Assembly: GCF_030814115.1 (NCBI RefSeq)
Contig: NZ_JAUSUP010000007.1
Span: 1 to 64,000 of the forward strand
Direction: 5' to 3'
Source: Alkalibacillus filiformis
Lineage (GTDB): Bacteria > Bacillota > Bacilli > Bacillales > Alkalibacillaceae
Length of the DNA stretch: 64,000 nt
Both the position numbers and the translations under genes were made by a program. Positions 1-61,703 of this stretch are shown here, in pieces. The notes beneath the pieces were generated by a model. It made no database searches and had not been told where the DNA came from. It was given only the letters and a program-made list of their open reading frames with translations. Position 1 is the first letter of the stretch, and every line of letters starts with the position of its first letter.

Positions 1-93
1 ACCACTATAATATGGAGGGAAATGATAAAAAATTGAGCAATTTTGAGTCACAGCTAGGTGAATTGTTTTGTGTCCAGTTTAAGGGGGCCTAGC

Positions 94-165
94 CGCGAGC
101 GCTGATAAAATTTCGTGAACGCTGATAAGTTTGGCACGAGCGCTGATAAAATATTTGAACACTGC
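94..165 (+). repeat. 20-bp repeat array, GAGCGCTGATAAA variant
   Basis: About four degenerate units built on GAGCGCTGATAAA or GAACGCTGATAAG follow each other at roughly 20-bp spacing, all in one orientation. The array lies past the 3' end of the leftward hydrolase gene. The same unit recurs near 11.4, 12.8 and 36.4 kb. Bases 1-93 before it show no gene. Confidence 0.85.
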
Positions 166-187
166 CCTCATTTCCTCAACAACAAAA

Positions 188-225
188 AAGATCCAAGCGA
201 AGTCATCATACCTCGCTTGGATCTT
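188..225. terminator. Intrinsic terminator of the hydrolase gene
   Basis: A 13-bp perfect stem (AAGATCCAAGCGA and its complement) around a 12-base loop, with a T-run on the minus strand. The stop codon of the hydrolase gene lies in the loop, so the last codons of the gene form part of the hairpin. Confidence 0.85.
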
Positions 226-1063
226 CTCTTACATTAGTAAGAAAACGATTAATTGTGTTTAGGACATCTTTTTGCCGTTCAAAAACTAGCGAGAAATGGT
301 TAGCATTTGTCATTAACACATTAATCCGTGGAACAATCTTTTCTAATTCCGCAAATGACTCGTTGAAAAAAAGTGGCCTACCTGCTCCCATGTAACCCGT
401 CGCTTTAACTAAAAGTACGGGAACTGTAATGTGTGGCAATACTTCTTCGTGATTAAACTCAAAAAAACTATCAAAGTCTTTCTCTATCACTTCAACTTTT
501 GAACGATGACGCACCGTTTTTTCATCGATTGCTTTTGTTTCATACTGTGCAATCTCCTCTAACTGTTGTGACCAGTTAATGTTTAGCTTCTCATACGCAC
601 GCTTTGTAAAATCAATATAATCAGCCTTAGATTGATATGGCTTCTCTAGCCGTTGTAGTGACGGTAAAATGAGTTCTTTTTGACCGAAATCAGCAACCCC
701 TGCACCATCTAGTAAAATGAGTGATCGAACGCGGCTACTTAAAGCTGTCACTTTCGCGCAAATATATCCACCAATTGAATAACCGACTAATGTAACCTCT
801 TTAAGATTTAACATCATTAATAAATCGAGTAAATCACCTACATGATGGTCGATCGAAGTTGGCCGGTCCGTCTCATCACTTAACCCTCGCCCTCGTAAGT
901 CATAACTAATGACTCGATGATCGCTAGCTAGTGAATCTTGATAATATGCCATTTGCTTATGGTTACCGGTTAAACCGTGAACTAAAATAACAACATGTTC
1001 CCCTTCGCCTCGCTCAAATACACGAAGCTTTTTACCGTTAGTTAATTGAATATGACGTTCCAA
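206..1063 (-). CDS. Alpha/beta hydrolase family protein
   Basis: A cytoplasmic serine hydrolase of the alpha/beta-hydrolase fold; substrate unknown. The oxyanion-side motif HGLTGN lies near residue 30 and the nucleophile elbow GYSIGG about 65 residues later; a late Asp and the C-terminal NANHF histidine can complete the triad. The open frame runs upstream to 1171, but that part overlaps the DUF3237 gene. A GAGGTG ribosome binding site six bases before a TTG codon at 1063 points to a 285-residue protein starting MERHIQL. It is the last gene of a leftward group with the DUF3237 protein and flavin reductase, which hints at hydrolysis of a ring-cleavage or ester intermediate. Family is certain, role is inference. 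Confidence 0.85.
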   Translation of the reverse strand: MERHIQLTNGKKLRVFERGEGEHVVILVHGLTGNHKQMAYYQDSLASDHRVISYDLRGRGLSDETDRPTSIDHHVGDLLDLLMMLNLKEVTLVGYSIGGYICAKVTALSSRVRSLILLDGAGVADFGQKELILPSLQRLEKPYQSKADYIDFTKRAYEKLNINWSQQLEEIAQYETKAIDEKTVRHRSKVEVIEKDFDSFFEFNHEEVLPHITVPVLLVKATGYMGAGRPLFFNESFAELEKIVPRINVLMTNANHFSLVFERQKDVLNTINRFLTNVREDPSEV

Positions 1064-1080
1064 TTCGAACACCTCAGCTT

Positions 1081-1714: not shown

Positions 1715-1724
1715 CATAACTCTA

Positions 1725-3834: not shown

Positions 3835-4680
3835 CTATCTCTGTAAGTTGTCATCGATTAAGTTACTTAATTTCTCTACATCTTCTAAAACGTCTTGAAC
3901 GGCTTGTGACATGCTTTCCATAGCATCTGACTGTTCAGCTGATTGTTGGTTGACGTTTTGAACCATTTGCTCGAAATTCTGTACATTCTCAACCAATGCT
4001 GAAGTAATATCACTTATTTCTTCTGAAGATTTCTTAGATTCACTTGCTAACTTTCTAACTTCATCAGCTACAACTGAAAATCCTTTTCCATACTCTCCAG
4101 CTCTAGCAGCTTCAATTGAAGCATTTAGTCCTAGAATATTGCTTTGATCAGAAATCTTAGTTACGTCTTCTGAAAATTCGTCTATACTCTTTATGTTATT
4201 ATTCATAGAACCAAACTGCTCTTTCGTTTCTTCCAAGTTTCGAGATAACTCATCACTTGTTGATGTCACTTCTTCAATTACTGAAGTTATGTTTTCAAAC
4301 GTTTCATATAGTTTATTACTAACTTCTGAGAGCACTTCTGCTCTTTCTATACTTGTTCCAATACCGACGCCACCAATGATTTCACCATCATCATTTCTCA
4401 GCGGAATTGCTCTAGCAATTACAGGTACACCAAAGACTTCTTTAGGTACTCTCATCGTCTGTTGCTGACCTTCATTGATCGCTTTTGTAATAATATCCCC
4501 TTCTTGTAACGGGTCACCTTGTTGTACTGGTAACTGAAAAGTCTCACCTGGAATGTTTAATAATAGTCTTTCAGTATCATAGATTCCTACTGTTACATCC
4601 TCTTGTATTAAAGGGTTCAATAATGGTGCAACTTTTTGAAACGCTTCCAACACACTTAAATCATTTTTAACTGTTTCCAA
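3835..4680 (-). CDS. yfmS: Soluble methyl-accepting chemotaxis protein, YfmS-like
   Basis: A cytoplasmic chemoreceptor of 281 residues without membrane segments. Residues 1 to about 120 form a sensor region; the rest is a coiled-coil signalling domain with the conserved hairpin tip ([17 protein letters not shown], then [10 protein letters not shown]) that contacts CheA and CheW. Heptad-rich helices flank the tip. The start is TTG, fixed by AAGGAGG seven bases before it. Expression is probably set by the cyclic-di-GMP riboswitch just upstream, so receptor level would follow the motile/sessile signal. The aldehyde dehydrogenase next to it suggests the receptor senses an aromatic aldehyde or its cofactor state; that is inference. 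Confidence 0.92.
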
Positions 4681-4710: not shown

Positions 4711-4820
4711 AGGTAAACCGTTTGTAGTTACCCGGCGGCACGGCCACCATAGCAACTGCCTTAGGTCCGTAACTTTGCGTATCACTTTTTCAAATGACTT
4801 GCCACTCTTTTCGGTTTACA
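4711..4820 (-). promoter_or_regulatory. Cyclic-di-GMP-I (GEMM-I) riboswitch
   Basis: Read on the minus strand, the RNA shows the GEMM-I landmarks in order: P1 5' strand GUAAACCG, a GGCAAG segment, a P2 hairpin UCAUUU-GAAA-AAGUGA with the GAAA tetraloop, the conserved ACGCAAAG, the CCUAAGGC receptor-type segment, a P3 arm closing in GCCGCCGGG, and the P1 3' strand CGGUUUAC, an eight-base perfect match to the first. It lies 31 bases before the chemoreceptor start. The tail of P1 (ACCUCU) can pair with the GGAGGU of the ribosome binding site, so ligand binding may free the site and raise translation; this direction is inference. Confidence 0.9.
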
Positions 4821-4872: not shown

Positions 4873-5772
4873 TTAGACGTTTCTAGTTTGAATAAACTCC
4901 TCGACTTCTTCTTTCGTCGGCATACCAGACTGTGCGCCTAGTTTACTAACCGACAGTGCCCCAACTGCATTTCCGAACAAACAACCTTCAGCTAACGAAT
5001 CACCTCGCGTTAACGCAACGGCCAACGCGCCATTAAATGAATCGCCTGCACCCGTCGTATCGACGACATCTACAGAAAAACCAGGGACTAGGTGAGACTG
5101 GCCATGCTCAAAATACTCGACACCTTTTGACCCGTGAGTGATTACGAACTTTTCGCGATTTTGTTCATAAAACGCCTTCTTCTCTTCATCATCTAAAAGC
5201 ACCGCTAACTCATGCTCATTCGGTGTAATATAATCGACAGAAGCCATAACAGAAATTGAGATCGGCTGAACAGGCGCAGGGTTTAAAATCACACGAACAC
5301 CATGCTTATTCGCCAACTCTACCGCTTTTTCAACGGATTCAATCGGAATTTCAAACTGAAGTAAAATCGTCTCACTTTCTGCAATGATAGGCTCATATTT
5401 CTCGACTAACTGTGGCGTAACTGCATGATTAGCACCAGGAACAACGATAATATGATTATCATTCTCCGCAATCGTAATCGACGCAACACCCGTTGGTTCG
5501 CCTGGGGCTTCTTCAATATAATTTGTATTGATACCTTGAGTTTCAAAATGGTGATTTAACGTTTTAGCAAAAGCATCATTTCCAACACAACCAATTAAAT
5601 TCACATTCGCACCAAGCTTACTTGAAGCAACGGCCTGATTAGCTCCTTTTCCACCTGGGATCGTTGAAAAAGATTTCCCTAAGAGCGTTTCACCTTTATT
5701 CGGAAACTGTTCTGCTTCTGTCACTAAATCCATATTAATACTACCGATCACTGTTACTGTTCCTGATGACAT
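4873..5772 (-). CDS. rbsK: Ribokinase (PfkB family)
   Basis: Phosphorylates D-ribose to ribose 5-phosphate with ATP. The 299-residue protein carries the PfkB signatures: the N-terminal GSINMDLV with GGKGANQAVA near residue 40 for sugar binding, and the C-terminal DTTGAGDSFNGA with the catalytic Asp in the anion hole. The open frame extends to 5850, but an AAGGAGGAG site before the ATG at 5772 and the palindrome upstream argue for the shorter start. It stands after the terminator of the DUF1028 gene, so it may be its own transcript, in a neighbourhood with a nucleoside hydrolase that would release ribose. Confidence 0.93.
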   Translation of the reverse strand: MSSGTVTVIGSINMDLVTEAEQFPNKGETLLGKSFSTIPGGKGANQAVASSKLGANVNLIGCVGNDAFAKTLNHHFETQGINTNYIEEAPGEPTGVASITIAENDNHIIVVPGANHAVTPQLVEKYEPIIAESETILLQFEIPIESVEKAVELANKHGVRVILNPAPVQPISISVMASVDYITPNEHELAVLLDDEEKKAFYEQNREKFVITHGSKGVEYFEHGQSHLVPGFSVDVVDTTGAGDSFNGALAVALTRGDSLAEGCLFGNAVGALSVSKLGAQSGMPTKEEVEEFIQTRNV

Positions 5773-5821
5773 AATGCTCCTCCTTAACTCACTTATATGA
5801 CACTCACCGACAATTATATGT

Positions 5822-5839
5822 AAATTTCCCGGGAAATTT
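5822..5839. promoter_or_regulatory. 18-bp perfect palindrome upstream of ribokinase
   Basis: AAATTTCCCGGGAAATTT is a perfect 18-base palindrome 50 bases before the ribokinase start and just past the preceding terminator. Symmetry and place fit an operator for a dimeric repressor of this gene. The regulator is unknown and no second copy was noticed in the window. Confidence 0.55.
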
Positions 5840-5868
5840 CCTGACTTCATTTTACATAAAAAGCTATA

Positions 5869-8671: not shown

Positions 8672-8675
8672 ATTA

Positions 8676-11409: not shown

Positions 11410-11412
11410 AGT

Positions 11413-11617
11413 GTGAGCGCTGATAAATTTTGCTGAGCGCTGATATTTTATCGTGAGCGCCGATAAATTTTGCTGAGCGCTGATATTTTATCGTGAGCGC
11501 TGATATTTTATCGTGAGCGCCAAATGAATCTCGTGAGTGCCAATTTATTTTTGCGAGCGCCAAAATAACTTTCGCGAGCGCCAAATTAATTCCGGGAACG
11601 CCAAATAATTGCTCGCC
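11413..11617 (+). repeat. 20-bp repeat array, GAGCGCTGATA/GAGCGCCAAAT variants
   Basis: Ten head-to-tail units, nearly all exactly 20 bases long. The first five read GAGCGCYGATAWW, the last five GAGYGCCAAWT, so the array shifts from one variant to the other midway. It fills the space between the permease and the PucR-type regulator. An open frame on the minus strand through it is an artefact. Confidence 0.9.
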
Positions 11618-12785: not shown

Positions 12786-12970
12786 GCTCGCACCGATTTT
12801 TTTGCGGTAAATTTTATCAGCGTTCGCCCACTTTTATCGGCGCTCGTGATAATTTATCGGCATTCACGCTATTTTTATCAGCGCTCGTAAAATTTTATCG
12901 GCGCTCAACCAAGTTTTATCAGCGCTCGCCCACTTTTATCAGCGCTCAGACCAATTTATCAGCGCTCACC
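12781..12970 (-). repeat. 20-bp repeat array (inverted orientation) inside regulator locus
   Basis: About nine units of the form TTTATCAGCGCTCG, the reverse complement of the arrays at 0.1, 11.4 and 36.4 kb. The array occupies the whole gap between nagB and the truncated RpiR gene and takes the place of the missing 5' part of that gene. Confidence 0.9.
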
Positions 12971-12982
12971 ACCGAACTGATT

Positions 12983-22050: not shown

Positions 22051-22066
22051 TTGAAAGCGCTTTTTT
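22051..22066 (+). promoter_or_regulatory. cre-like site before the msmK-type gene
   Basis: TTGAAAGCGCTTTTTT matches the cre consensus except for the two bases of the terminal CA. It lies 32 bases before the ATG at 22099, where CcpA could act on the sugar-transporter ATPase gene. Confidence 0.5.
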
Positions 22067-22098
22067 ATAAAATAAGATTAGTAGAAAGGATGGTTGAA

Positions 22099-23196
22099 AT
22101 GGCAGAGTTAAAACTAAACAATATTAATAAGTATTATGAAAAAGATGTACACGCCGTTAAAAATTTTGATTTAGATATTGGAGATAAAGAATTTGTTGTA
22201 TTTGTCGGCCCGTCTGGTTGCGGTAAGTCAACGACACTACGTATGATCGCTGGGTTAGAGGACATTACATCAGGTGACTTAATGATTGACGATCGACGTG
22301 TCAATGATGTCCCACCGAAAAACCGTGATATCGCAATGGTTTTCCAAAACTACGCGCTATACCCGCACATGTCGGTTTATGACAACATCGCATTCGGCTT
22401 AAAGCTACGTAAGTTTAAAAAAGAAGTGATTAAAGAAAAAGTAGAAGAAGCAGCTAAAATTCTTGGCTTAGAAGACTACTTAGACCGTAAGCCTAAAGCA
22501 CTTTCAGGTGGTCAGCGTCAGCGTGTTGCACTATGACGCGCAATCGTACGTGATGCAAAAGTGTTCTTAATGGACGAACCGTTATCAAACTTAGATGCGA
22601 AACTACGTGTTCAAATGCGTACAGAAATTCAAAAGCTTCACCAACGTCTACAAACAACAACAATCTACGTGACACACGACCAAACAGAAGCGATGACGAT
22701 GGCAACACGCCTAGTCGTTATGAAAGATGGCGTTGTTCAACAAGTTGGTTCTCCGAAAGAAGTATTTGATTATCCGAACAACGTATTCGTAGGAGGATTT
22801 ATCGGTTCACCAGCAATGAACTTCTTTAATGGAACAATTGAAGATGGAGCATTTAAAGTGGGCGATACAACTTTTGAAATCCCTGAAGGCCGCATGAAAA
22901 TTTTACGCGATCAAGGCTATGTTGGAAAAGGTGTTGCGATGGGCGTTCGTCCTGAAGATATTCATGATGAGCCAGTCTTTATCGAAAACTCACCAGGTAC
23001 AGCATTCGAATCAAACGTCGAAGTAGCTGAACTAATGGGATCTGAAACTTACCTATACTCGCGCCTAGGCGAGCAAGAATACATTGCACGCGTTGACGCA
23101 CGTACACAAGTGAACGCAGGCGACAGCGTGAAACTAGCAATCGACATGAACAAGGTCCACTTCTTCGATTCAGAAACAGAAGAGCGAATTAAATAG
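22099..23196 (+). pseudogene. msmK: Sugar ABC transporter ATPase (MsmK/UgpC type) with in-frame TGA
   Basis: A 366-codon gene for the shared ATPase that powers several carbohydrate ABC importers. All parts are in one frame: Walker [11 protein letters not shown]-loop [10 protein letters not shown], signature [11 protein letters not shown], Walker B VFLMDEPLSNLDAKL, H-loop THDQTEAM, and the C-terminal TOBE regulatory domain. The single defect is TGA at 22534-22536 where relatives have a Gly (GGA) directly after RVAL. Read-through (context TGA C) would give a full protein; otherwise it stops after the signature. The ABC permeases at 30.7-33.8 kb have no ATPase of their own, so this gene is the likely partner. 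Confidence 0.88.
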
Positions 23197-23226: not shown

Positions 23227-23257
23227 CGTTTTGATAGTGTTGTACATCGCGGAATTA

Positions 23258-23372
23258 GGCGAACGCTTAGTTAATTAGGCGTTCGCCTAAAAATTTTTCA
23301 TTTCGCCTGAATATCAAGAATTTCGCCTAATTATTTTAAAAATCGCCTGATTCTCAAATAATCAGGCGATTT
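23258..23372 (+). repeat. 20-bp repeat array, CGCCTGAATAT variant
   Basis: Opens with an inverted pair (GCGAACGC ... GGCGTTCGC), then TTTCGCCTGAATAT and TTTCGCCTAATTAT units at 20-base spacing, and closes with a hairpin AATCGCCTGATT / AATCAGGCGATT. It lies between the convergent msmK-type and FGE genes; the closing hairpin serves the FGE gene as terminator. Confidence 0.88.
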
Positions 23373-23383: not shown

Positions 23384-24319
23384 CTATACATCTTTCACAC
23401 ATCGAAAGCCAATATTACCTGACGAGCTGTCTGGTGTGTTGGAAGTACGTGCTGCCACTCGGTAGCGATTGCAGTATGAGTCGTGGCATAAGTACGACCC
23501 GCCTCTCATCGCTTTTGCATCTGCTTCACCTACCTGGGATCCCTCAATTACAAACGAATCCGCGCTCCACTCCCATACGTTGCCTGCCATTTGATCAAGT
23601 CCAAATCCATTGCTTTGATATGCATAGACTGGTGCTGTCGCTAAATACCCGTCTTCCATAATGTTCTGCGTTGGGAATTCTCCTTGCCAAATGTTACACA
23701 TATGCCTGCCACCAGGTATCAACTCATCTCCCCACGGGTAACGCTTTTGCACGAGTCCACCACGTGCAGCATACTCCCATTCTGCTTCAGTCGGCAATCT
23801 TTTTCCAGCCCACTTACAATAAGCGGCCGCATCATTCCATGACACGTGTACAACGGGGTGCTTCATTCGTTGATCGATATTCGAATATGGTCCCTCAGGC
23901 TGGTACCAATAAGCTTTTTCAACGACAACCCACCAAGGCGTATTCGGCACGCGCTGTCTAGCAAAAGGTACATTTTCCCCTTTGATAAACTTATGAAAAA
24001 CGAACGACCAGCCAAACTGCTCAGCTTCTGTCACATATCCTGTCTCATCGATAAAAGCTTTAAATTCACGATTCGTCACGACTGTTTTGTCGATATAAAA
24101 CGGGTCAACAACGACTTCACGAACAGGTCCTTCCCCATCATGAGGGTTAATGTCGTGATCGTCAGAGCCCATTAAAAATGGACCTCCATTTAGAAACACC
24201 ATCTCTTTTTCAAGGTCATGTTCACTTTTCGAGATGTCTGCATTGCGGCGTTCACCCGTTGAAAAGTCGACCTTCACTTGTTCACGTTTTGCACTGCAGC
24301 AAGATTTTTCTCCACTCAC
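23384..24319 (-). CDS. Formylglycine-generating enzyme (sulfatase activator)
   Basis: Oxidises the active-site Cys of type I sulfatases to formylglycine. The 311-residue protein has the FGE-sulfatase fold: FLNGGPFLMGSDD near residue 43, a central PVVHVSWNDAAAYCKWAGKR with LPTEAEWEYAARGG, the GNVWEWSAD segment, and the catalytic Cys pair in GSYLCHDSYCNRYR near residue 280, so the enzyme should be active. A Cys-rich start (KSCCS) is typical of bacterial forms. GTG start with GAGGTG before it. It lies just downstream of the sulfatase gene, which has a Cys-type motif, and is certainly its activator. Confidence 0.95.
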   Translation of the reverse strand: MSGEKSCCSAKREQVKVDFSTGERRNADISKSEHDLEKEMVFLNGGPFLMGSDDHDINPHDGEGPVREVVVDPFYIDKTVVTNREFKAFIDETGYVTEAEQFGWSFVFHKFIKGENVPFARQRVPNTPWWVVVEKAYWYQPEGPYSNIDQRMKHPVVHVSWNDAAAYCKWAGKRLPTEAEWEYAARGGLVQKRYPWGDELIPGGRHMCNIWQGEFPTQNIMEDGYLATAPVYAYQSNGFGLDQMAGNVWEWSADSFVIEGSQVGEADAKAMRGGSYLCHDSYCNRYRVAARTSNTPDSSSGNIGFRCVKDV

Positions 24320-24349
24320 ACCAACACCTCACTTCTACACAATCTAATT

Positions 24350-24447
24350 CGGCGTTCGCCGGAATCCCCACCTGTTTCGCCGGAAAAATTTAATTTTCGC
24401 CGGATTATTGAATTTTTCGCCGGAATATCAACAAAATCGCTGATAAA
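24350..24447 (+). repeat. 20-bp repeat array, CGCCGGAATAT variant
   Basis: Starts GGCGTTCGCCGG, then four TTTCGCCGGAWWAW units at 20 to 21 bases, ending in TCGCTGATAA. It fills the gap between the FGE and sulfatase genes. Confidence 0.88.
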
Positions 24448-24528
24448 CGACACTAATCGACAACCAACCCACTAAATAATATCATAAATAAAAGCAGGGA
24501 CGAACGCGAGCGCCCCCACTTCTATTCA

Positions 24529-28095: not shown

Positions 28096-28157
28096 AATCG
28101 ACACTCCCACTCTATAAAAATTCCGTGACATCTTTTGAAGCAAATTGGTAAATTATG

Positions 28158-28278
28158 TTTTATCAGCGATTTTTCATATATTCCAGCGAAAATTAAATTT
28201 TTCCGGCGAAATCTTAAATAATTCGGCGAAAATCTCTATATTCCGGCGAAACCACCTCATATTCCGGCGAACGCCTGA
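28158..28278 (-). repeat. 20-bp repeat array (inverted), CGCCGGAATAT variant
   Basis: Reverse-complement orientation: TATCAGCGA, then TTCCGGCGAAAA units at 20-base spacing, ending GGCGAACGCC next to the pgmB stop. It separates pgmB from GH65 enzyme 1. Confidence 0.88.
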
Positions 28279-28968
28279 TTACTCCGCCTTCGCACTCACA
28301 CCGAAGCTCTGATATGCTTGAATAATCTCATCAAAATCAAGTTCAGTCGTATCATCGACGCGGTAATCAGCGTGCGATAACGCCTCAGCTGTTCCGACAC
28401 CGACCGAAAACATTCCAGCGCTGTTAACGGCTGTTACGCCAGATGGTGCATCTTCAATGCCGATGCACTCGACATAATCGACACCAAAATAATCTGCTGC
28501 ATTCGTAAACGTCTCAGGGTCAGGTTTACCTTTCGACACTTGTGCGGCATCGACAATATAGTCAAATTGATCAATGAGCTTAAGTTCCTTTAAGACGTGC
28601 GTTGCATTTTTACTCGCTGAACCTAAACCTACTTTAATCCCTTGCTGACGAATCGTTGCTAATAGATCTGTAATGCCTGGTAAAATATCGTCTTCACTTA
28701 TCGTGCCTAATAAGTCGACATAGTGATCATTTTTTTCAGTTGCTAATGCTTCTTTACGCTCAAGTGATAAGTCACTCTGATTAGAATCAAGCGCTAAAAT
28801 TTTCTCTAACGACTCCATACGCCCAACACCTTTTAACTCTTCATTAAACTCGCGGTCAATCGTAATTCCTAAAGAATCGGCTAACCTTTTCCACGCTTGA
28901 TAATGTAATTCAGCCGTATCGGTAATAACACCATCTAAATCAAAAATAAATGCTTTTGGCATGATCAT
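28279..28968 (-). CDS. pgmB: Beta-phosphoglucomutase
   Basis: Converts beta-glucose 1-phosphate, the product of GH65 phosphorylases, to glucose 6-phosphate. The 229-residue HAD protein has the motif I FDLDGVITDTAELHYQAW, GVGRMESLEKIL in the cap, the VGLGSASKNA loop, the lysine in SKGKPDPETF and the acidic GIEDAPSGVTAVNSAGM, all typical of beta-PGM. AAAGGAA lies nine bases before the ATG. Its place between the regulator and a GH65 gene is the standard arrangement of disaccharide phosphorylase loci. Confidence 0.95.
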   Translation of the reverse strand: MIMPKAFIFDLDGVITDTAELHYQAWKRLADSLGITIDREFNEELKGVGRMESLEKILALDSNQSDLSLERKEALATEKNDHYVDLLGTISEDDILPGITDLLATIRQQGIKVGLGSASKNATHVLKELKLIDQFDYIVDAAQVSKGKPDPETFTNAADYFGVDYVECIGIEDAPSGVTAVNSAGMFSVGVGTAEALSHADYRVDDTTELDFDEIIQAYQSFGVSAKAE

Positions 28969-36268: not shown

Positions 36269-36412
36269 TAACTTTCAAAAAATTTTTTAAGCACCCTGTT
36301 CGTGCTCGTAAATCAAAGTATAAGAGCATTCTATTAAAAAGTCAACAGAAAATGAAAGCGATTTTATAGACAAATTTTGGGGATGTTTTGAGTGGAAGCT
36401 GATCTTTTGGCT

Positions 36413-36728
36413 TGAGCGCTGATAAATTCTCGTGAACGCTGATAACTTGAGCGCGAGCGCTGATAAATTTTTGTGAACGCTGATAAGCTTGGTCCGAGCG
36501 CTGATAAATTTTCGTGAACGCTGATAAGCTTGGTCCGAGCGCCGATAAATCCTCGTGAACGCTGATATCATAGTCGAAGTGCTGTTATGTTCGTGAGCGC
36601 CAAATTATCTCGTGAACGCCAGAATTTTTAAGCGAACGCCAAATTAATTCGTCCGAGCGCCAGAATATTTCCGCGTGCGCCAAATTTTTGACCGCGAACG
36701 CCAGAATATCCCCACGAACGCCAAAAAA
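36413..36728 (+). repeat. Long 20-bp repeat array, GAGCGCTGATAAA and GAACGCCAAAT variants
   Basis: About fifteen units in one orientation; the first half alternates GAGCGCTGATAAATT and GAACGCTGATAAGCT, the second half reads GAACGCCARAAT or GAGCGCCAGAATAT. Two 40-base pairs in the first half are almost identical, a sign of recent local duplication. It fills the gap between two divergently unrelated leftward units and ends in a hairpin terminator. Confidence 0.9.
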
Positions 36729-36756
36729 AATCGCCGAACAATTCTATTCGGCGATT
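36723..36756 (-). terminator. Terminator after nucleoside hydrolase 2
   Basis: AATCGCCGA / TCGGCGATT stem; on the minus strand it is followed by eight T. Built from the same core sequence as the neighbouring repeat units. Confidence 0.85.
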
Positions 36757-36782
36757 CGCGGAAAACCTTCTTTCATTTCCTT

Positions 36783-39818: not shown

Positions 39819-39897
39819 CTGTTTCTAAACTATAATTCTTCCACCATACACAATTTCGTGACTAGAAGCAATAAGTACGACTTCCTAATCCTCATAA

Positions 39898-40012
39898 TCC
39901 GGCGTTCGCCGGATTATGGTTGCATTTCGCCGGAATATTTTAATTTTCGCCGGAATAATAAAAATTTCGCCCGAAAAATAAAATAATCGCCGGAATCTAT
40001 TACCCGGCGATT
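39898..40012 (+). repeat. 20-bp repeat array, CGCCGGAATAT variant, with terminator
   Basis: GGCGTTCGCCGG start, four TTTCGCCGGAATAWT units at 20-base spacing, and a closing stem AATCGCCGG / CCGGCGATT that should end the DUF35 gene transcript on the minus strand. Confidence 0.88.
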
Positions 40013-53579: not shown

Positions 53580-53608
53580 CGAACGTCTATTAAGGCGTTC
53601 GTTTTTTT
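53580..53608 (+). terminator. Terminator after Zn-ribbon membrane protein gene
   Basis: CGAACG / CGTTCG stem with a ten-base loop and seven T. The stem shares the GCGAACG core seen at the start of the repeat arrays. Confidence 0.75.
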
Positions 53609-53620
53609 CTATAATTGGAT

Positions 53621-53709
53621 TCCGGCGTTCGCCGGATTATTGAAGATTTCGCCGGAATATCGTGATTTTCGCCGGATTACCATCAAAGTCGCTGATAATC
53701 CAGATAATG
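53621..53709 (+). repeat. 20-bp repeat array upstream of NERD gene
   Basis: GGCGTTCGCCGG, then TTTCGCCGGATTAT, TTTCGCCGGAATAT and TTTCGCCGGATTAC units at exactly 20-base spacing, and a closing GTCGCTGATAATCCAG. The last 65 bases are nearly identical to the array downstream of the NERD gene. Confidence 0.92.
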
Positions 53710-54800: not shown

Positions 54801-54818
54801 GGCATAATCTAGGAATTC

Positions 54819-54952
54819 AGCGTTCGCCGGATTATGAGGCACTTTCACCGGAAAAATTTAATTTTCGCCGGATTATTGAAAAATTCGCCGGAATATCGTG
54901 ATTTTCGCCGGATTACCATAAAAGTCGCTGATAATCCAGATAATGTAAGCGA
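54819..54952 (+). repeat. 20-bp repeat array downstream of NERD gene
   Basis: Five units, GCGTTCGCCGG to TTTCGCCGGATTACC, ending GTCGCTGATAATCCAG. From about 54880 to 54952 it copies the array at 53621-53709 with only a few changes. Confidence 0.92.
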
Positions 54953-55020: not shown

Positions 55021-56289
55021 CTAAAAATACACCCCATAAACAATCGCACTGGTCACCAGCATGACTGCCACACTCAACGGCAGCCCGACCTTAACGAAAT
55101 CTACAAATCTATAGCCGCACGCCTCGTATACAACGAGATTCGTCTGGTAGCCGATTGGGGTGACGAAGCTTGCGGAGGCGGCAATGGCGATGACGACTGC
55201 GAAGCCAATCGGATCGACATGTAGCACCCGTGCCATTTCTAAACCGATTGGCAGCATGAGCACGGCGGCAGCGACGTTCGTCATCAGCTCAGTGAATAGG
55301 TTCGTTAAAAGGTACAGTGCGACGACCACGGCGAACATGCCTAGCGGGGCGACGGCCGCCAACACGACCGTGGCGATCCAATCTGCTAAACCGGACTTCG
55401 ACATAGCCATCCCAACGCCAATCGCACTCGAAACGAGGATTAAAATTTGCCAAGGAATCGTTCGCACAACATCCCCCGTTTTCAACACGCGCGATACTAA
55501 AAGCAACACGACAACAGATGTAACAGCGATCAACATCGGCACCAAGCCAAAAGCAACTAACACAATCGCCACGCCTAAAAGCGATAAAGCAATCCATCCG
55601 TCTGCCGGATTCCCTCGGCTTGTACCCATTTTACGCCGACGCATCCCCCGCCCCCGACGACCACGCTTCGTTCTTTTATCAGGCAAAAGTCGCCAGCCGA
55701 CAATCGCCACATAAACAAGCCCTACAAGGGTAATAGGCACACCAACGACCGCCAATTGAAAAAAACCAAACCCTTCCAGCTCAACTTCTCGCAGCAAGCC
55801 ATCGACAACAAGATTCGTCGACGTCCCAATTAACGTCACCGTTCCGCCTAAAATCGTCACGTAAGAAAGCGGAATTAATAGTTTCGTCTCTGGCACGCCG
55901 TTTCGCTTACACCAATTTCATACAACCGGAACTAAAGTGACCACAATCGGCGTGTTATTCAAAAAACTTGAAGCCCCAGCTGCAGGTGCGAGTAACCGGA
56001 CCACTAAATCTCTCATCGAACCCACTTCCGCTCCACGCAAAAGCTTCCCAACGATTCGCGTCATCACTCCGCTTCTTTCAATCACGCCAGCAATGACAAA
56101 CAACAAACCGATCGTCCAGACCCCTTCATTAACAAAGCCTCTCGCCGCTTCATTCGGCTCGAGCACTCCCGATAACAAAAGCACGACTAACGCCACAAAA
56201 ACAACCCACTCCGCTCGAAACCGATCCGTCAATAAAACGATAATCATGAAACATATAAGTCCACTAACCAACATCATTTCAACCGTCAT
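55021..56289 (-). pseudogene. SLC13/DASS-type anion permease with in-frame TGA
   Basis: A 422-codon frame for a divalent-anion:sodium symporter-like permease with about 11 spans. The first part holds GAAGASSFLNNTPIVVTLVPVV-type motif (the conserved SNTPIV-like loop) and the second a matching GTSTNLVVDGLL and ITPIGYQTNLVVYEACGY repeat. It is interrupted by one TGA at 55918-55920 between LVPVV and NWCKRNGVPETKL; all else is in frame. It may be a recent pseudogene or be read through. An Arg-rich loop (KRTKRGRRGRGMRRRKMG) follows span 4. GC content is higher than that of its neighbours, which suggests transfer. Confidence 0.85.
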
Positions 56290-56390
56290 ATTACCAATCC
56301 TCTACCTCGAGTTCTCACATAATCTATGAAAACAAAAGTCGATCGGTAAGAGCGGACGACCTAGGATTGATAGCGTAATTAAGCGAACGC

Positions 56391-56477
56391 TTAATTAATC
56401 GGGCGTTCGCCTAATTATCGTGGATTTCGCCTGAATATCAAAAAAATCGCCTGATTCCACAATAACCAGACGATTTC
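56391..56477 (+). repeat. 20-bp repeat array, CGCCTGAATAT variant
   Basis: GCGAACGC-TTAATTAATC-GGGCGTTCGC inverted pair, then TTTCGCCTGAATAT units and a closing hairpin CGCCTGATT ... AACCAGACG. It lies in the 312-base gap between the divergent SLC13 gene and the Fe-ADH gene. The remaining bases of this gap carry only the Fe-ADH leader. Confidence 0.88.
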
Positions 56478-56601
56478 ATTCTTCGCTTTCTTACTCCACT
56501 CTAAATTTATCAAACTTTTCTGAATAAAACCTACCTCTCTTCATATATTTTCGTTATAATAGTAAATAAATACTATTCTACAAACATTTAAGGAAGGTGG
56601 T

Positions 56602-57765
56602 TTGATCGTACAAGCAGTGCAATACCCGCGTTCAATTTATATCGGTGAAAAAAGTTTAACGAAATTACAGCAAACTTTAAAACAACTAAATACCACTAAC
56701 CCGCTCTTCATCATGAGTCAAACTCTAGCAAAATCACCATACGTCCAAGAGACTATTAACAAACTACCATACGAAACGTCAACTTTTACTAACTTTCAAG
56801 GCGAACCAAACACTAACCACTTAACTCTAGCAACAGACCATTTCCAACAAAAGCAATGTGACAGTATCGTTGCGATTGGTGGCGGCAGCGCAATCGACTT
56901 AGCTAAGGCTGTTTCGTATCAAACTTTAAATCCTTCTATGAAACTTACTGAAATACCTAATCAAGATCACATCCCGAGAGTTCCACTAATCGCCGTTCCA
57001 ACTACAGCTGGCACTGGTTCTGAAGCAACAAAAATAACGGTGATCACAGATGAGACTAGCCAAATTAAAATGAACCCTGCTCACCATGACCTCACCCCAG
57101 ATGTTGCAATACTAGATCCGCTTCTAACAACATCTTTGCCTCAACACATCACAGCCTATACTGGAATAGATGCACTCGCTCATGCAATGGAAGCATATGT
57201 TTCAACGTTAGCAAGTGATTTAACCGACGATTATGCATTGAAAGCCATTCGCTTAATCGGTGAATATCTACCAATTGCCGTCCATCAACCAGAAAGCATC
57301 GAAGCCCGTGAAAAAATGTTAAAAGGAAGTCTTTACGCTGGCATTGCCTTTTCAAATGCATCTACAAACCTAGCTCATGCGACTGCCAGACCATTAGGAG
57401 CGCGGTTCAAAATTCCACACGGATTAAGCGTAGCATTAACACTTTCACAAGTCGTCAAATTCGGGCTCCAATCTACTGAACAACGTTATGCTAATATAGC
57501 AAGCGCTTTACACCAAGACCCTCTAAAAACAGATGCGCAAGACACGTATCAATTCATCGAAGACCTTAACGATACATTTAACATTTACGAACTTGCTCAA
57601 ACTTATATTCAACATGACTTTCAAGACGACATCCCTCAACTTACAGAAGATGCACTTTCAGGAAATGGTATTAAGACAAACCGCAAACTCCCTACAACTT
57701 CAGACATTCAAAAAATCTATTATCAAATCAATAAAAACTTAGGAGTGATCAAATGGCAGAAATGA
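56602..57765 (+). CDS. Iron-containing alcohol dehydrogenase
   Basis: A 387-residue group III alcohol dehydrogenase that interconverts an aldehyde and an alcohol with NAD(P). Marks are GGGSAIDLAKAVSYQ near residue 95, VPTTAGTGSEATKITVITD, the metal ligands in YTGIDALAHAMEAYVS near residue 190 and the HGLSVALTLS histidine near residue 275. TTG start with AAGGAAGGTGG upstream. It is the first gene of a four-gene operon; its end overlaps the TPP enzyme by 13 bases. It probably reduces the aldehyde made by that enzyme. Confidence 0.93.
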   Translation: MIVQAVQYPRSIYIGEKSLTKLQQTLKQLNTTNPLFIMSQTLAKSPYVQETINKLPYETSTFTNFQGEPNTNHLTLATDHFQQKQCDSIVAIGGGSAIDLAKAVSYQTLNPSMKLTEIPNQDHIPRVPLIAVPTTAGTGSEATKITVITDETSQIKMNPAHHDLTPDVAILDPLLTTSLPQHITAYTGIDALAHAMEAYVSTLASDLTDDYALKAIRLIGEYLPIAVHQPESIEAREKMLKGSLYAGIAFSNASTNLAHATARPLGARFKIPHGLSVALTLSQVVKFGLQSTEQRYANIASALHQDPLKTDAQDTYQFIEDLNDTFNIYELAQTYIQHDFQDDIPQLTEDALSGNGIKTNRKLPTTSDIQKIYYQINKNLGVIKWQK

Positions 57766-59501
57766 CTGGCGGCGAAGTAATTGCCAAAATGTTAGGTAAG
57801 GAAAATGTGAATAAAGTGTTCGGCATCATTGATGGCACTTATTTTGGACTATATTCAAGCTTTGAAAAATACGGCATCGACCTCATTACACCTCGTCACG
57901 AAACGAGTGCTGCTCATATGGCGGGGGCTTATGCAAGAACTACTGGTGACTTAGGTGTATGTATGGCAAGTAATGGCCCAGGCGTTGCTAATATTCTCCC
58001 GGGCCTAGTAGTCGAGGAAGCTGAAGGAAATCGTGTATTAGTCATTACGAGCTCGAGGCGCACCGGAATTATGTATCCTGACCGCGGTGGTACATACCAA
58101 TGCTTCAACCAAACAGGCGTCATAAAACAAATGGCAAAATGGAGCGAGGCTGTCCTCTCTTTTGACCGAATTCCAGAATTAATGCGCACCGCTTTACGTG
58201 AGTGTTATGACGGAAGGCCTGGTGTTGTCCATTTAGATATTCCAGAAAACATTATGAATTCCAAGTTCAAAGCTACATTCCCATTCCAAGAACCACATCA
58301 ATACAGACTTATGACCAACCTTGATCCAACTGAAGAACAAGTAAAACAAGCGGCTCAACTACTTTTAAAAGCTAAGTTCCCGATCATCCATGCCGGTAGT
58401 GGTGTCATCCATGCTCAAGCTTACGACGAGCTTGAAAGTATCGCGGACTTACTCCAGTCAATGGTGACAACGAGTTGGTCAGGTCGTGGCGCTATGCGAG
58501 AAAGCAACCGCCTCACCATGCCAATGGTACACATCGAAACGAACAACAACATTCGAAACGAAGCCGATCTCGTTCTAGTCCTCGGTTCAAGACTCGGCGA
58601 GACAGATTGGTGGGGAAAAGCACCTTATTGGAACAAAGACCAACAAGTCATCCAAGTTGACCTAGACCCGAGCATAATCGGCATGAACAAACCGATAGAT
58701 CTTGGCATTCAAGCTGATATTAAGCAATTTTTAGCCAAGCTGTACGATCAACTCGTCGAACAAAAAGACCAAATCGAAACGAACAACCGCAAGACGACGA
58801 TTAATAAATTTGTAGAAGAAAAAGAAAAGCACCGCAAAAAACTCGATCAAAAGCTCGAAGACACTGAAGCTCCAATGAACCCAGCACATGTCCCTTATTT
58901 GGCACAACAAGTCTTCTCATCAGAAGTCCCCGTCATCGCTGATGGTGGTAACACAGCGATTTGGGCTAACTTTTATTCAACCGTTGAAAAACCTGGTTCA
59001 CTCTTTTCGACATTTAAATTCGGGATGCTTGGCGCTGGCGTTGCTCAAGCATTAGGCGTTGCAGCTGCTAATCCTGATGAACCGGTTATTTGTGTCATTG
59101 GTGACGGTGCGATGGGCTTTCACCCACAAGAGGTGGAAACAGCCGTCCGAAACAACTTGAAAGTGATCTTCCTCGTCGTTTGTGACAAACAATGGGGCAT
59201 GGTGAAAATTAACCAAAACTTCTCCCTTCGTCCGGTCAAAACACTTGTCAAAAAATCACTTGATGAAGAGGAAAACATAAATGCTGACTTAGGAGAAATT
59301 AACTTTGATCAACTCGCTCAAAGTATGGGAGCACACGGCGAGCGAGTATCAGAACCAGATGAGTTACGAGAAGCGCTCGATCGCGCCTTAAAACTTGACC
59401 AATGTGCTGTCATTCATTGTGACGTTGACCCTGTCAAACATATGTGGGCACCAGGGTTAAAATATTTCAAAGACATGCACCTTGAGCCAAAGGGGAAATA
59501 G
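57753..59501 (+). CDS. Thiamine pyrophosphate-dependent enzyme (AHAS/decarboxylase family)
   Basis: A 582-residue three-domain TPP enzyme. The N-terminal HETSAAHMAGAYARTTG holds the catalytic Glu, the middle domain spans roughly residues 195-330, and the C-terminal GDGAMGFHPQEVETAVRNNL is the TPP/Mg motif, with KQWGMVKINQ after it. It decarboxylates or ligates a 2-oxo acid. It is not an acetolactate synthase in an ilv context; the neighbours (Fe-ADH, BASS transporter) suggest a 2-oxo acid decarboxylase whose product aldehyde is reduced. Exact substrate unknown. Confidence 0.88.
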   Translation: MAEMTGGEVIAKMLGKENVNKVFGIIDGTYFGLYSSFEKYGIDLITPRHETSAAHMAGAYARTTGDLGVCMASNGPGVANILPGLVVEEAEGNRVLVITSSRRTGIMYPDRGGTYQCFNQTGVIKQMAKWSEAVLSFDRIPELMRTALRECYDGRPGVVHLDIPENIMNSKFKATFPFQEPHQYRLMTNLDPTEEQVKQAAQLLLKAKFPIIHAGSGVIHAQAYDELESIADLLQSMVTTSWSGRGAMRESNRLTMPMVHIETNNNIRNEADLVLVLGSRLGETDWWGKAPYWNKDQQVIQVDLDPSIIGMNKPIDLGIQADIKQFLAKLYDQLVEQKDQIETNNRKTTINKFVEEKEKHRKKLDQKLEDTEAPMNPAHVPYLAQQVFSSEVPVIADGGNTAIWANFYSTVEKPGSLFSTFKFGMLGAGVAQALGVAAANPDEPVICVIGDGAMGFHPQEVETAVRNNLKVIFLVVCDKQWGMVKINQNFSLRPVKTLVKKSLDEEENINADLGEINFDQLAQSMGAHGERVSEPDELREALDRALKLDQCAVIHCDVDPVKHMWAPGLKYFKDMHLEPKGK

Positions 59502-59504
59502 ACG

Positions 59505-60434
59505 ATGGGGATCGATGAGGTACAGTTAAACTTTAATGCCACGACGTTAATGATGATGAATATATTAATCGGCTTTATTATGTTTGGTGTGGCGTTAGAT
59601 TTAACCGTCAAAGATTTTAAACGAACGTTAAAAACACCGAAACCATTTCTTATTGGGTTAACGGCTCAATTTTTATTACTGCCAGCTTTTACTTTTTTGC
59701 TCGTTTTAATTTTACAGCCACAACCGAGCATCGCACTCGGCATGTTTTTAGTCGCAGCTTGTCCAGGTGGCAATCTATCAAACTTCCTTGCCCATCTTGG
59801 TAAAGGAAGAACCACTCTATCCATAAGCATGTCTGCTGTTTCAACTTTATTCGCCACCTTTATGACGCCATTGAACACGATCTTTTGGGGATCACTGTAC
59901 GGCCCGACAAATGATCTATTGCGGACATTTATGATCAGCCCTGTTGACTTACTCATGACCATTTTCATTTTACTAGGCATCCCTTTAGCATTAGGCATGT
60001 ACGTTAATTACCGATATCCAGAATGGTCACAAAAAGCAAGCAAATGGATGAAGCGCTTTTCGATTGTATTCTTTATATTATTCGTATTAGGTGCGCTCGC
60101 TGCCAACTTTGGCTATTTCATAGAGTTCGTTGGCATGGTTGTATTAGCAGTCTTTTTACACAACTTACTCGCCATTTCATTAGGCTACTTCTCAGCACGT
60201 TCGTTTGGATTAGAAGAGCGTGACAGACGCGCGATTTCAATCGAAATAGGCATCCAAAACTCTGGGCTTGGCCTCATATTAATCTTTAACTTTTTCGATG
60301 GCTTAGGCGGTATGGCGATCGTCGCCGCATGGTGGTCAATCTGGCATATTATTGCCGGTTTAACACTAGCTAGCTTCTGGTCACGTCGCACACCTGAACA
60401 ATACAAAGAAGAAAGTGAGGGGCAAGTGGCATGA
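59505..60434 (+). CDS. Bile acid:sodium symporter family protein (BASS)
   Basis: A 309-residue membrane protein with nine to ten spans, of the BASS family. Marks are FIMFGVALDLTVKDFKRTLK near residue 22, the AACPGGNLSNFLAHLGKGRT unwound-helix motif near residue 85 and IEIGIQNSGLGLILIFN near residue 245, the second crossover. BASS carriers take up organic anions such as pyruvate, pantoate or bile acids with sodium. Placed between the TPP enzyme and an epimerase, it probably brings in their substrate. Confidence 0.93.
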   Translation: MGIDEVQLNFNATTLMMMNILIGFIMFGVALDLTVKDFKRTLKTPKPFLIGLTAQFLLLPAFTFLLVLILQPQPSIALGMFLVAACPGGNLSNFLAHLGKGRTTLSISMSAVSTLFATFMTPLNTIFWGSLYGPTNDLLRTFMISPVDLLMTIFILLGIPLALGMYVNYRYPEWSQKASKWMKRFSIVFFILFVLGALAANFGYFIEFVGMVVLAVFLHNLLAISLGYFSARSFGLEERDRRAISIEIGIQNSGLGLILIFNFFDGLGGMAIVAAWWSIWHIIAGLTLASFWSRRTPEQYKEESEGQVA

Positions 60435-61381
60435 ACATACTCATTACAGGGGCAATGGGCTATATCGGGAGCCAACTTGTCAAAAAAATGATGCAACTTA
60501 ACCAAGAGCGCGACACTCCTTGGCAGATTATTGCAACTGACATAAAAGAAAAAGCTGATTTTAACATGGATGAACATGTACATTATATAAAAATGGACGT
60601 TCGCTCACCACAAGTTCTCACCGTACTTATGCATTATGAGATTGACACAGTGATCCATTTAGCCACCATCGTCACACCAGGTAAGAAAAGCAACCGCGAA
60701 TTTGAATATTCAGTCGATGTTGAAGGAACGCAAAATATTTTAGAGGCTAGTGTCGATTGCGGAATTGAGCGCGTCGTCATTACATCAAGTGGTGCAGCAT
60801 ACGGCTACCACCCTGATAACGCCGAATGGATCAAAGAAGATCACCCAATCCGCGGCAACGAAGAGTTCGCTTATTCTTATCATAAGCGATTAGTAGAAGA
60901 AATGCTTGCCGACTACCGTAGACGTTACCCACAGTTAGAACAAGTCATATTCAGAATCGGGACCATTCTCGGCGAAAACGTCGATAACCAAATCACAGAT
61001 TTATTTAAGAAAAAACGCTTACTCGGCATTAAAGGCTCAGACAGCCCATTCGTATTCATTTGGGACCAAGATGTCATCGCTTGTTTAATAAAAGCAATAG
61101 AAAGTGAAAAAGTCGGCATTTACAACGTTGCCGGTGACGGCGCACTGACAGTCGACGAACTAGCTAATATACTAGACAAAAAAGTCATTCGAATTCCCGT
61201 CAAACTTATAAGAGGCGCGTTGTTTGCACTCAAAAGACTTCGCCTCACCCAATACGGAGAAGAACAAGTCAACTTCCTCCGCTATCGACCCGTGCTCGAT
61301 AACACAAAATTAAAAGAAGACTTCGGCTATAAACCGACTTATACATCGGAAGAAGTTTTTCGGGAGTATGTGAGGGAGTGA
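60431..61381 (+). CDS. NAD-dependent epimerase/dehydratase family protein
   Basis: A 316-residue extended short-chain dehydrogenase. ITGAMGYIGSQLVKKMM binds NAD; the catalytic Tyr-Lys pair is in FAYSYHKRLVEE near residue 145, with a TSSGAAYGY stretch before it. Targets are usually sugar nucleotides, but in a catabolic setting such proteins also oxidise hydroxy or lactone compounds. Its start overlaps the BASS gene by four bases, so it belongs to the operon. Confidence 0.88.
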   Translation: MNILITGAMGYIGSQLVKKMMQLNQERDTPWQIIATDIKEKADFNMDEHVHYIKMDVRSPQVLTVLMHYEIDTVIHLATIVTPGKKSNREFEYSVDVEGTQNILEASVDCGIERVVITSSGAAYGYHPDNAEWIKEDHPIRGNEEFAYSYHKRLVEEMLADYRRRYPQLEQVIFRIGTILGENVDNQITDLFKKKRLLGIKGSDSPFVFIWDQDVIACLIKAIESEKVGIYNVAGDGALTVDELANILDKKVIRIPVKLIRGALFALKRLRLTQYGEEQVNFLRYRPVLDNTKLKEDFGYKPTYTSEEVFREYVRE

Positions 61382-61404
61382 GACTTGGGCGAACATTTGG
61401 GTAA

Positions 61405-61534
61405 TCCAGCGTTCGCCGAATTACCACCTGGTTTCGCCGGAAAAATTAAATTTTCGCCGATATATTGAAAAAATCGCCGGAATACTGTGATTTTCGCCTG
61501 AATATTAAAAAAATCGCTGATAATCTAGATAATG
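61405..61534 (+). repeat. 20-bp repeat array, CGCCGGAATAT variant, before a second array
   Basis: GCGTTCGCCGAAT, TTTCGCCGGAAAAATT, TTCGCCGATATATT, ATCGCCGGAATACT and TTCGCCTGAATATT units at 20-base spacing, ending ATCGCTGATAATCTAG. The last unit switches to the CGCCTGA form. Confidence 0.9.
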
Positions 61535-61566
61535 GAATTGCGACACTGCGGATCAAAATCGGTGTT

Positions 61567-61703
61567 TAAGCGAACGCTCAATTAATTAAGCGTTCGCCTG
61601 ATTATCGTGGATTTCGCTCGATTATTGTGATTTTCTCTTAATTAATTAAAATTTCGCCTGAATATCAAAAAATCGCCTGATCCCGCAATAATCAGGCGAT
61701 TTC
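61567..61703 (+). repeat. 20-bp repeat array, CGCCTGAATAT variant, with terminator
   Basis: GCGAACGC ... GCGTTCGCCTG inverted start, five TTTCGCYYGAWTAT units, and a closing hairpin AATCGCCTGAT / ATCAGGCGATT with T-runs on the minus strand that ends the small gene transcript at 61713. It stands side by side with the CGCCGGAATAT array, so two variants meet here. Confidence 0.9.

What the first reader, a model, noticed from the sequence alone, without database searches (positions are those of the whole stretch)
53..61703. One superfamily of degenerate 20-bp intergenic repeat arrays, thirteen copies in 64 kb
Arrays at 0.1, 11.4, 12.8, 23.3, 24.4, 28.2, 36.4, 39.9, 53.6, 54.8, 56.4, 61.4 and 61.6 kb are all built of direct repeats with an almost exact 20-base period. 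Three variants exist (GAGCGCTGATAAA, CGCCGGAATAT, CGCCTGAATAT); hybrid arrays at 11.4, 36.4 and 61.4 kb show they share one ancestor with a common CGCYGRWWA core. Every array lies in a gap between genes, and several end in an inverted copy that forms the terminator of the next gene. A period near two helical turns would put each unit on the same face of the DNA, as for a bound protein. Long open frames through arrays are artefacts.
Basis: partly seen in the sequence, partly recalled or inferred. Interest (0 to 1): 0.8.

Follow-up and report, generated by a model that had tools for sequence, protein, structure and literature searches.

The report
Phased intergenic repeat arrays of Bacillales
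This salt-loving bacterium and scattered distant relatives carry, between their genes, rows of a short DNA word set 20 or 21 letters apart; the pattern looks like a row of docking sites for an unknown protein, but it may also be an old selfish repeat.

Summary
All 13 arrays are present, lie between genes, and far exceed chance (17 array calls against a mean of 0.05 in 20 shuffles). The host belongs to Alkalibacillus. The unit is a core of about 10 bp, CGCYGATAAW, plus a nearly free linker of about 10 bp; cores recur mostly every 20 or 21 bp. The window variants (GAGCGC type; CGCCGGA/CGCCTGA type) belong to one superfamily, with intermediate forms in sister species. The same core and spacing, with mostly unrelated linkers, occur in 22 of 397 sampled genomes of the order (two or more hits, this genome included) and in 0 of 391 genomes elsewhere in the phylum. 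Arrays avoid divergent promoter gaps, favour convergent gaps and show no orientation preference. Between species they stay in place while units come and go; in two of three species pairs the CGC and GATAA positions are better conserved than neighbouring DNA, the third pair fails this test. I favour recognition of double-stranded DNA by an unidentified protein binding side by side (0.45). The main rival, a BOX-like parasitic repeat, fits the cassette-like B and C elements well. The searches made matched no known RNA or repeat family. No binding protein was identified.

The parts
94..155 (+). type A array, 3 units (GAGCGCTGATAAA), steps 20, 21
11412..11610 (+). type A array: GAGCGCYGATA units followed by GAGCGCCAAATTAATT-type (D) units
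12809..12971 (-). type A array, 8 units; orthologous arrays in G002 and G003 continue into D-type units
23255..23370 (+). type C cassette: head palindromes (23255-23290), CGCCTGA/CGCCTAA units, tail hairpin (ends approximate)
24345..24450 (+). type B cassette: head palindrome CGGCGTTCGCCG (24350-24361), CGCCGGA units, CGCTGATAA end (ends approximate)
28160..28280 (-). type B cassette, 5 units (ends approximate)
36411..36757 (+). A-D array: 7-8 GARCGCYGATAA-like units, then GARCGCCARAATATT-like units, then tail hairpin (36728-36757) that is terminator-like on the minus strand
39892..40012 (+). B::C fusion: B head (39892-39919) and units, C-type tail hairpin (39985-40012); G002 and G003 hold a longer version at this place
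53617..53709 (+). type B cassette, 3 units; G002 differs by an 18-kb segment whose junction is at this array
54812..54945 (+). type B cassette, 5 units, tail TCGCTGATAATCCAGATAATG
56378..56477 (+). type C cassette; tail hairpin 56443-56477
61402..61534 (+). type B half of a B-C composite
61565..61695 (+). type C half of the B-C composite, ending in a tail hairpin (end approximate)

Best explanation
These are intergenic arrays of a recognition word that is read at the DNA level. Each unit is an asymmetric site of about 10 bp (CGCYGATAAW) plus a spacer of about 10 bp, so successive sites point the same way and sit about two helical turns apart. The most likely mechanism is that an unidentified sequence-specific protein binds neighbouring sites side by side and forms a nucleoprotein stretch between transcription units. 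Shown here: the core, the 20/21 step, the mostly free linkers, the intergenic placement, the lack of orientation preference, the stable places with unit turnover, and the recurrence in distant genera. Inferred: that a protein binds, that it oligomerises, and what the stretch is for (a chromosome-organising or insulating role is a guess). Arrays grow and shrink by unequal recombination (inferred from unit-sized gaps), often in two-unit steps. In Alkalibacillus a derived form (B and C cassettes with palindromic ends) has also been dispersed as a block.
For: Core step 19/20/21 in 123 of 132 nearest-neighbour pairs in the own sample, the other 9 near-multiples of it. 118 core pairs at 19-22 bp in 461 kb, against 0 for each of about 200 scrambled cores. 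Same core and mostly 20/21 steps in 18 of 18 stretches fetched around hits from 12 genomes (10 genera), and in Oceanobacillus senegalensis and Sporolactobacillus nakayamae. In the own genome linkers of neighbouring units are no more alike than those of different arrays (0.34 vs 0.36); cores there are 0.93 alike, partly by construction as they were picked at 8 of 9 matches or better. In two of three species pairs (own-C5, C5-NBRC) the CGC and GATAA positions are 0.92-1.0 identical, neighbouring DNA 0.87-0.88, and two positions inside the core (R, Y) only 0.64-0.84 (three thresholds; no test of significance was run). Array strand does not follow transcription: 21 same, 15 opposite (p=0.41); 15 to 13, 19 to 14 and 19 to 14 in the unmasked recount.
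Against: No binding protein was found. The third species pair (own-NBRC) does not show the core better conserved than its flank (0.81 vs 0.85). Placement resembles that of parasitic repeats: convergent gaps enriched, divergent gaps depleted. Distribution among genomes is patchy, and 3 of 6 Alkalibacillus genomes lack the GARCGC form. Type A arrays fold somewhat better than shuffles on both strands (mean z -2.1 and -1.9, 24 arrays), B/C arrays less so (-1.6 and -0.9, 10 arrays). Oceanobacillus linkers are alike within arrays (0.69). B cassettes look copied as blocks. Gene conversion, or an aligner that lines up cores, could also make cores look conserved.
Confidence: 0.45

Rival explanations
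1. A BOX-like family of short interspersed, modular, parasitic repeats: spread in trans by an unknown enzyme, tolerated downstream of genes, with middle units that expand and contract and no host function.
For: B and C cassettes have a set order: palindromic head, usually four B units with position-specific linkers, tail; and B-C composites about 165 bp apart. Convergent gaps 18 of 55 arrays vs 34 of 271 array-free gaps (p=0.0009), divergent 1 of 55 vs 69 of 271 (p=2e-5) (same direction at three frame cut-offs without masking, p 0.0004-0.001 and 0.00008-0.0012). The BOX paper takes enrichment in convergent gaps as a sign of parasitic elements (PMC3049150, sections 5 and 6 read). Patchy presence.
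Against: In type A arrays and in several other genera linkers are unrelated while cores are kept, which block copying alone does not predict. Position-specific freedom at two core positions. The same core and 20/21 step in 13 families. Y1 transposase (RAYT-type) absent from the three array-rich congeners. No clean empty site or target duplication was seen in the places aligned. BOX elements are slightly over-represented in divergent gaps, unlike these arrays.
Confidence: 0.35
2. RNA-level elements: arrays are transcribed and act as structured RNA, terminators or processing sites.
For: Tail hairpins are terminator-like on one strand at 36.7, 40.0 and 56.4 kb. Two arrays of genus g38 lie, by eye, between a terminator-like leader hairpin and a start codon. 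Type A mean fold z -2.1 and -1.9 on the two strands.
Against: No strand preference relative to genes (21 vs 15). Fold signal is about equal on both strands, as the partly palindromic type A core predicts. No Rfam match to arrays in the window. The core in other genera is not self-complementary (by inspection).
Confidence: 0.12
3. Neutral satellite-like tandem repeats made by replication slippage, with no recognition at all.
For: Gaps between orthologous arrays are often 18-22 or 40-42 bp, and unit counts differ. Oceanobacillus and Sporolactobacillus arrays are long and more homogeneous.
Against: Single-unit slippage would make neighbouring units most alike, yet adjacent linkers in the own genome are at background (0.34) and i+2 linkers are alike (0.60). 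It does not predict the same core and step in unrelated families.
Confidence: 0.08

Closest known systems
BOX elements of Streptococcus pneumoniae (boxA-boxB(n)-boxC)
   Same: Short modular intergenic repeats with end modules, a variable number of middle units, stem-loops, enrichment between convergent genes, frames through large copies (PMC3049150: abstract and sections 5 and 6).
   Different: Middle unit is 20-21 bp with a 10-bp core and free linker; the core-and-step pattern spans 13 families, whereas the abstract puts BOX in S. pneumoniae and S. mitis with related elements in S. suis; BOX is slightly over-represented in divergent gaps, these arrays are depleted there; terminal inverted repeats with target duplication not shown here; no BOX sequence model was compared.
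ParR-binding centromeres (parC) of plasmids such as pSK41
   Same: Direct repeats of about 20 bp bound side by side by an oligomerising protein (passages of PMC9426499).
   Different: Here dozens of chromosomal sites; no parM/parR family among 20 window proteins near arrays; the ParM-family search (StbA_N) rang nowhere, controls included, so it is uninformative.
Noc-binding sites of Bacillus subtilis
   Same: Dispersed chromosomal sites that leave out the terminus region (passages of PMC4331003); own-genome exact type A clusters are absent from about 800 kb around the GC-skew switch.
   Different: Noc sites are discrete palindromes; these are asymmetric tandem arrays, and in G377 the arrays crowd one side of dnaA.
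REP/BIME elements with RAYT transposases
   Same: Palindromic intergenic repeats downstream of genes (recalled).
   Different: Y1_Tnp found in 1 of 6 congeners, G001, which has no array hits, and not in the array-rich ones.

Membership tests
BOX element | modular order: end module, variable number of middle units, end module | tested here: met
   B and C cassettes; only partly true of type A arrays
BOX element | boxA/boxB/boxC sequence similarity | not tested
   no BOX models were at hand; unit length differs from recalled boxB length
BOX element | terminal inverted repeats and target-site duplication | tested here: inconclusive
   heads and tails are palindromic but no clean empty site was seen in the five window places aligned with orthologues
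REP/RAYT | associated Y1 transposase in array-bearing genomes | tested here: not met
   PF01797 in 1 of 6 congeners, the array-free G001
ParMRC centromere | tandem direct repeats of 10-20 bp | tested here: met
   comparison from PMC9426499 passages
ParMRC centromere | parM and parR genes next to the repeats | tested here: inconclusive
   none among 20 window proteins near arrays; StbA_N search rang in no control genome either
CRISPR array | repeats of about 23-47 bp with unique spacers and cas genes (recalled) | tested here: not met
   core about 10 bp, linker about 10 bp; no cas family among the 30 window proteins scanned
Rfam RNA family | covariance-model match at gathering score | tested here: not met
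   only a c-di-GMP-I riboswitch in the window, outside the arrays; arrays of other genera not scanned
DnaA box cluster | TTATCCACA-like 9-mers (recalled) | tested here: not met
   reverse core TTATCRGCG differs at 3 of 9 positions by inspection; no binding tested

The most novel reading that the evidence does not exclude
A previously undescribed nucleoprotein system of Bacillales: a conserved protein recognises CGCYGATAAW, assembles along arrays spaced at two helical turns, and marks or insulates boundaries between transcription units in selected chromosome regions, with arrays as fast-evolving landing platforms.
Probability: 0.25. Interest if true: 0.85.

Novelty: new variant of a known kind. 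Interest (0 to 1): 0.6.

Why it matters
If a protein reads these arrays, they would reveal an undescribed DNA-organising or insulating system spread unevenly over an order of well-studied bacteria, with the binding word and spacing already in hand. If they are parasitic, they are an unusually wide and phased relative of BOX-type repeats. Either way they explain a set of spurious reading frames and warn against annotating them.

Tried and rejected
RAYT/REP mobiliser: Y1_Tnp only in array-free G001 of 6 congeners. Phage or plasmid origin: no match in plasmids or phages by distant BLAST with one 171-bp array. Viral contigs gave 0, 1 and 8 stretches for three patterns; I judged the last two to be at about chance level from a rough estimate of my own, not a tool control, and did not inspect those nine stretches. 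Known RNA family: none on window arrays. Translated repeat protein: rejected, since 20-bp units leave the opposite strand nearly free of stops in all frames. ParM linkage: uninformative, as the search rang in no control. A simple origin-distance rule: own, G002 and G377 leave the dnaA neighbourhood free of listed hits, but G377 arrays lie nearly all on one side and the Oceanobacillus arrays sit at 8-32 kb and 3.83-3.97 Mb of their record with dnaA unplaced, so no common rule was reached. Fur and DnaA boxes: considered from memory, not matched. Literature: exact 13-mer, 0 papers; the other nine searches listed no description of these arrays in the titles and abstract starts shown. The library lacks most subscription papers. 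PMC6344855 and PMC2267715 were seen only as passages; the latter lists B. halodurans families Bhal-1 and Bhal-2 that were not compared.

Corrections made on checking: a label says '11 other genera'; counted again it is 9 genera besides Alkalibacillus. One search put stops into the arrays before calling frames, so it could not find an array inside a gene; one search repeats it without masking and its numbers are given for that point.
Full report
What is there. At threshold 9 there are 17 array calls with 74 units, against a mean of 0.05 arrays in 20 shuffles. The exact 13-mer GAGCGCTGATAAA occurs 97 times in the genome and its reversed control 0 times. In 461 kb sampled from the genome (window plus 20 stretches, most of them chosen because they hold arrays), 118 core pairs stand 19-22 bp apart; about 200 scrambled cores give 0.

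Anatomy of the unit. In type A the informative stretch is about 13 bp, GARCGCYGATAAA, and the rest is near background (profile grown from core seeds). In 125 units from sister species and other genera the informative stretch is CGCYGATAWA, about 10 bp; those units were picked by the nine-base core, so its invariance there is by construction and only the neighbours are informative. Same-strand nearest-neighbour distances in the own sample are 19-21 in 123 of 132 cases, the rest 40, 41, 60 or 61. This count needs only exact cores, not a set spacing.

Two architectures. Type A arrays are runs of GARCGCYGATAA units, in several cases followed by GARCGCCARAATAT-like (D) units, at 36.4 kb also by a tail hairpin. 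Types B and C are cassettes. B has a palindromic head, usually four CGCCGGA units in a set order with position-specific linkers (copies with fewer or rearranged units occur), and often a tail TCGCTGATAATCCAGATAATG. C has head palindromes, CGCCTGA/CGCCTAA units and a tail hairpin. B and C stand about 165 bp apart as composites in G002 and at 61.4-61.7 kb in the window, and the 39.9 kb element is a B head fused to a C-type tail. Sister species G004 and G005 carry CGCYGATAW arrays in which inverted units already occur, which links the forms. The B/C pattern was found in no genus but this one: 2 of 299 genomes, own and G002, 1 of 116 genera (G003, not in that sample, has them too).

Spread. The pattern of two CGCYGATAA cores with 10-13 bases between occurs in 26 of 397 genomes of the order (this one included) and 17 of 136 genera. 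Four of these 26 have a single hit, which I set aside as possibly chance; 22 genomes of 15 genera and 13 families have two or more. The reversed control rang in 4 of 397 genomes, one of them 7 times. In a phylum sample of 398 genomes (7 of them in the order), 4 of the 391 others have one hit each and none has two. Eighteen stretches fetched around hits from 12 of those genomes all show at least one array of 4 or more units (core allowed two mismatches), with steps mostly 20 or 21 and mostly unrelated linkers. By exact pattern, named records are A. haloalkaliphilus (two strains), Oceanobacillus senegalensis (6 stretches; arrays of 7 to 27 units with step 20 almost throughout, and one run of 2) and Sporolactobacillus nakayamae (2 adjacent stretches; a run over about 1.1 kb up to a stretch of N). 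The own genome may be left out of that collection.

Evolution. Array places are old. For 37 own arrays, orthologous places with both flanks were found 19 times in NBRC stretches, all 19 with arrays, and 16 times in C5 stretches, 15 with arrays and 1 without; C5 against NBRC gave 26 rows (23 distinct places), all with arrays. This is biased, since most of those stretches were fetched because they hold arrays; the less biased window synteny stretches still show arrays at the orthologous places of 8 of 13 window arrays, the other five being at synteny breaks or not covered. Unit counts differ, and gaps of 18-22 and 40-42 bases are common among gaps inside arrays, beside short ones of 1-3 and some of other lengths. 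In the own genome linkers of adjacent units are as different as linkers of different arrays (0.34 vs 0.36), while second neighbours are alike (0.60): growth is often by two-unit steps. The same contrast is seen in genus g38 (0.39 vs 0.76) and, weakly, in eight other stretches (0.35 vs 0.49), hardly in G004/G005 (0.37 vs 0.41), and not in Oceanobacillus (0.69 vs 0.75). In units judged orthologous by their linkers (threshold 0.6), core, linker and near-flank identities are 0.92, 0.81 and 0.87 (own-C5, 44 units); 0.92, 0.79 and 0.88 (C5-NBRC, 49 units); 0.81, 0.73 and 0.85 (own-NBRC, 27 units); linker values are pushed up by the threshold. CGC and GATAA reach 0.92-1.0 in the first two pairs while R and Y vary at 0.66-0.84. 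The third pair does not support constraint above flank. Before unit filtering, core identity was 0.81-0.90, linker 0.54-0.68 and near flank 0.82-0.87.

Placement. Of 55 arrays classified (33 own, 22 from G004, G005 and 9 other genera), 36 are in tandem gaps, 18 in convergent gaps and 1 in a divergent gap; 6 more were at stretch edges. Array-free gaps of at least 100 nt: 168, 34 and 69 (p=0.0009 for convergent, 2e-5 for divergent). In tandem gaps array strand agrees with transcription 21 times and opposes it 15 times (p=0.41). That script masked the arrays with stops. Without masking, at frame cut-offs of 100, 150 and 200 aa, 11, 2 and 1 of 61 arrays fall in a frame, always on the opposite strand, and the two trends hold (p 0.0004-0.001 and 0.00008-0.0012; strand p 0.49-0.85). 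Frames are mechanical, not curated genes. So the arrays behave as double-stranded features kept away from promoter-only gaps. Enrichment in convergent gaps is also seen for pneumococcal repeats and read there as a sign of parasites; BOX, however, is slightly over-represented in divergent gaps (PMC3049150, section 6).

Chromosome position. In C1 the GC skew turns from plus to minus near 500 kb, which I read as the terminus (inference). None of 38 exact type A clusters (positions copied) lies in C1:209-1005 kb, 29% of the genome (11 expected; P about 2e-6 if clusters fell independently; region chosen after seeing the data); none of the 18 B/C pattern hits does either. Sampled stretches there have similar numbers of gaps to the others (36 vs 41 per 100 kb) but fewer convergent ones (2.1 vs 7.8), which may explain part of it. 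In G377, 15 of 17 clusters lie in 660 kb on one side of dnaA (also chosen after the fact). Clustering looks real, but no rule common to the genomes emerged.

Mechanism. A short asymmetric word, kept position by position, repeated in one direction at two helical turns with free spacers, is what a row of sites for a side-by-side binding protein looks like; pSK41 ParR on 20-bp repeats is a known parallel (PMC9426499 passages). I hold this at 0.45 because no protein was found and one species pair fails the conservation test. The B and C cassettes are best read as a dispersed, BOX-like derivative whichever view is right. Step drift (mean about 20.3) means that long arrays would follow a slow spiral rather than one face if the helix repeat is 10.5 bp.

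Novelty. In the searches named under Tried and rejected I found no description of these arrays; the library lacks most subscription papers. I class them as a new variant of a known kind, modular intergenic repeats, with the order-wide phased core as the unusual part.

Noticed in passing
window 4731-4813 (-): c-di-GMP-I riboswitch above gathering score, between a frame ending at 4680 and a PfkB-type kinase gene at 4873-5850.
   Followed up: no
window 55021-55896 and 55918-56289 (-): A citrate-transporter (CitMHS) gene appears as two adjacent frames, probably broken.
   Followed up: no
window 22051-22536 and 22561-23196 (+): An ABC transporter ATPase appears as two frames (ABC_tran part, then MalK-type OB/TOBE part), so it is possibly broken here.
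   Followed up: no
window 53608-53628; G002:C17 31139-49052: G002 carries about 18 kb that the window lacks, with the junction at the head of the 53.6 kb array.
   Followed up: partly
window 56456-61403; G002:C17 51866-54384: Between the arrays at 56.4 and 61.4 kb the window holds genes shared in order with array-poor G004 and G005, while G002 has different short segments separated by B-C composites: gene exchange bounded by arrays.
   Followed up: partly
own genome samples: Type B/C arrays lie on the strand I read as lagging in 13 of 14 cases, 10 of the 14 being in this one window; type A is 15 leading to 12 lagging. Unexplained.
   Followed up: no
L129, L130 (genus g38): Arrays lie between a terminator-like leader hairpin (T-box-like by eye) and a start codon, so these two copies are probably transcribed.
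   Followed up: no
L012, L013 (Oceanobacillus senegalensis): The same frames appear twice on either side of array stretches, which may be assembly duplication at arrays rather than biology.
   Followed up: no
window 23384-25839 (-): Sulfatase gene beside a sulfatase-modifying-factor gene, and two GH65 genes at 25855-28143 and 33824-36184.
   Followed up: no
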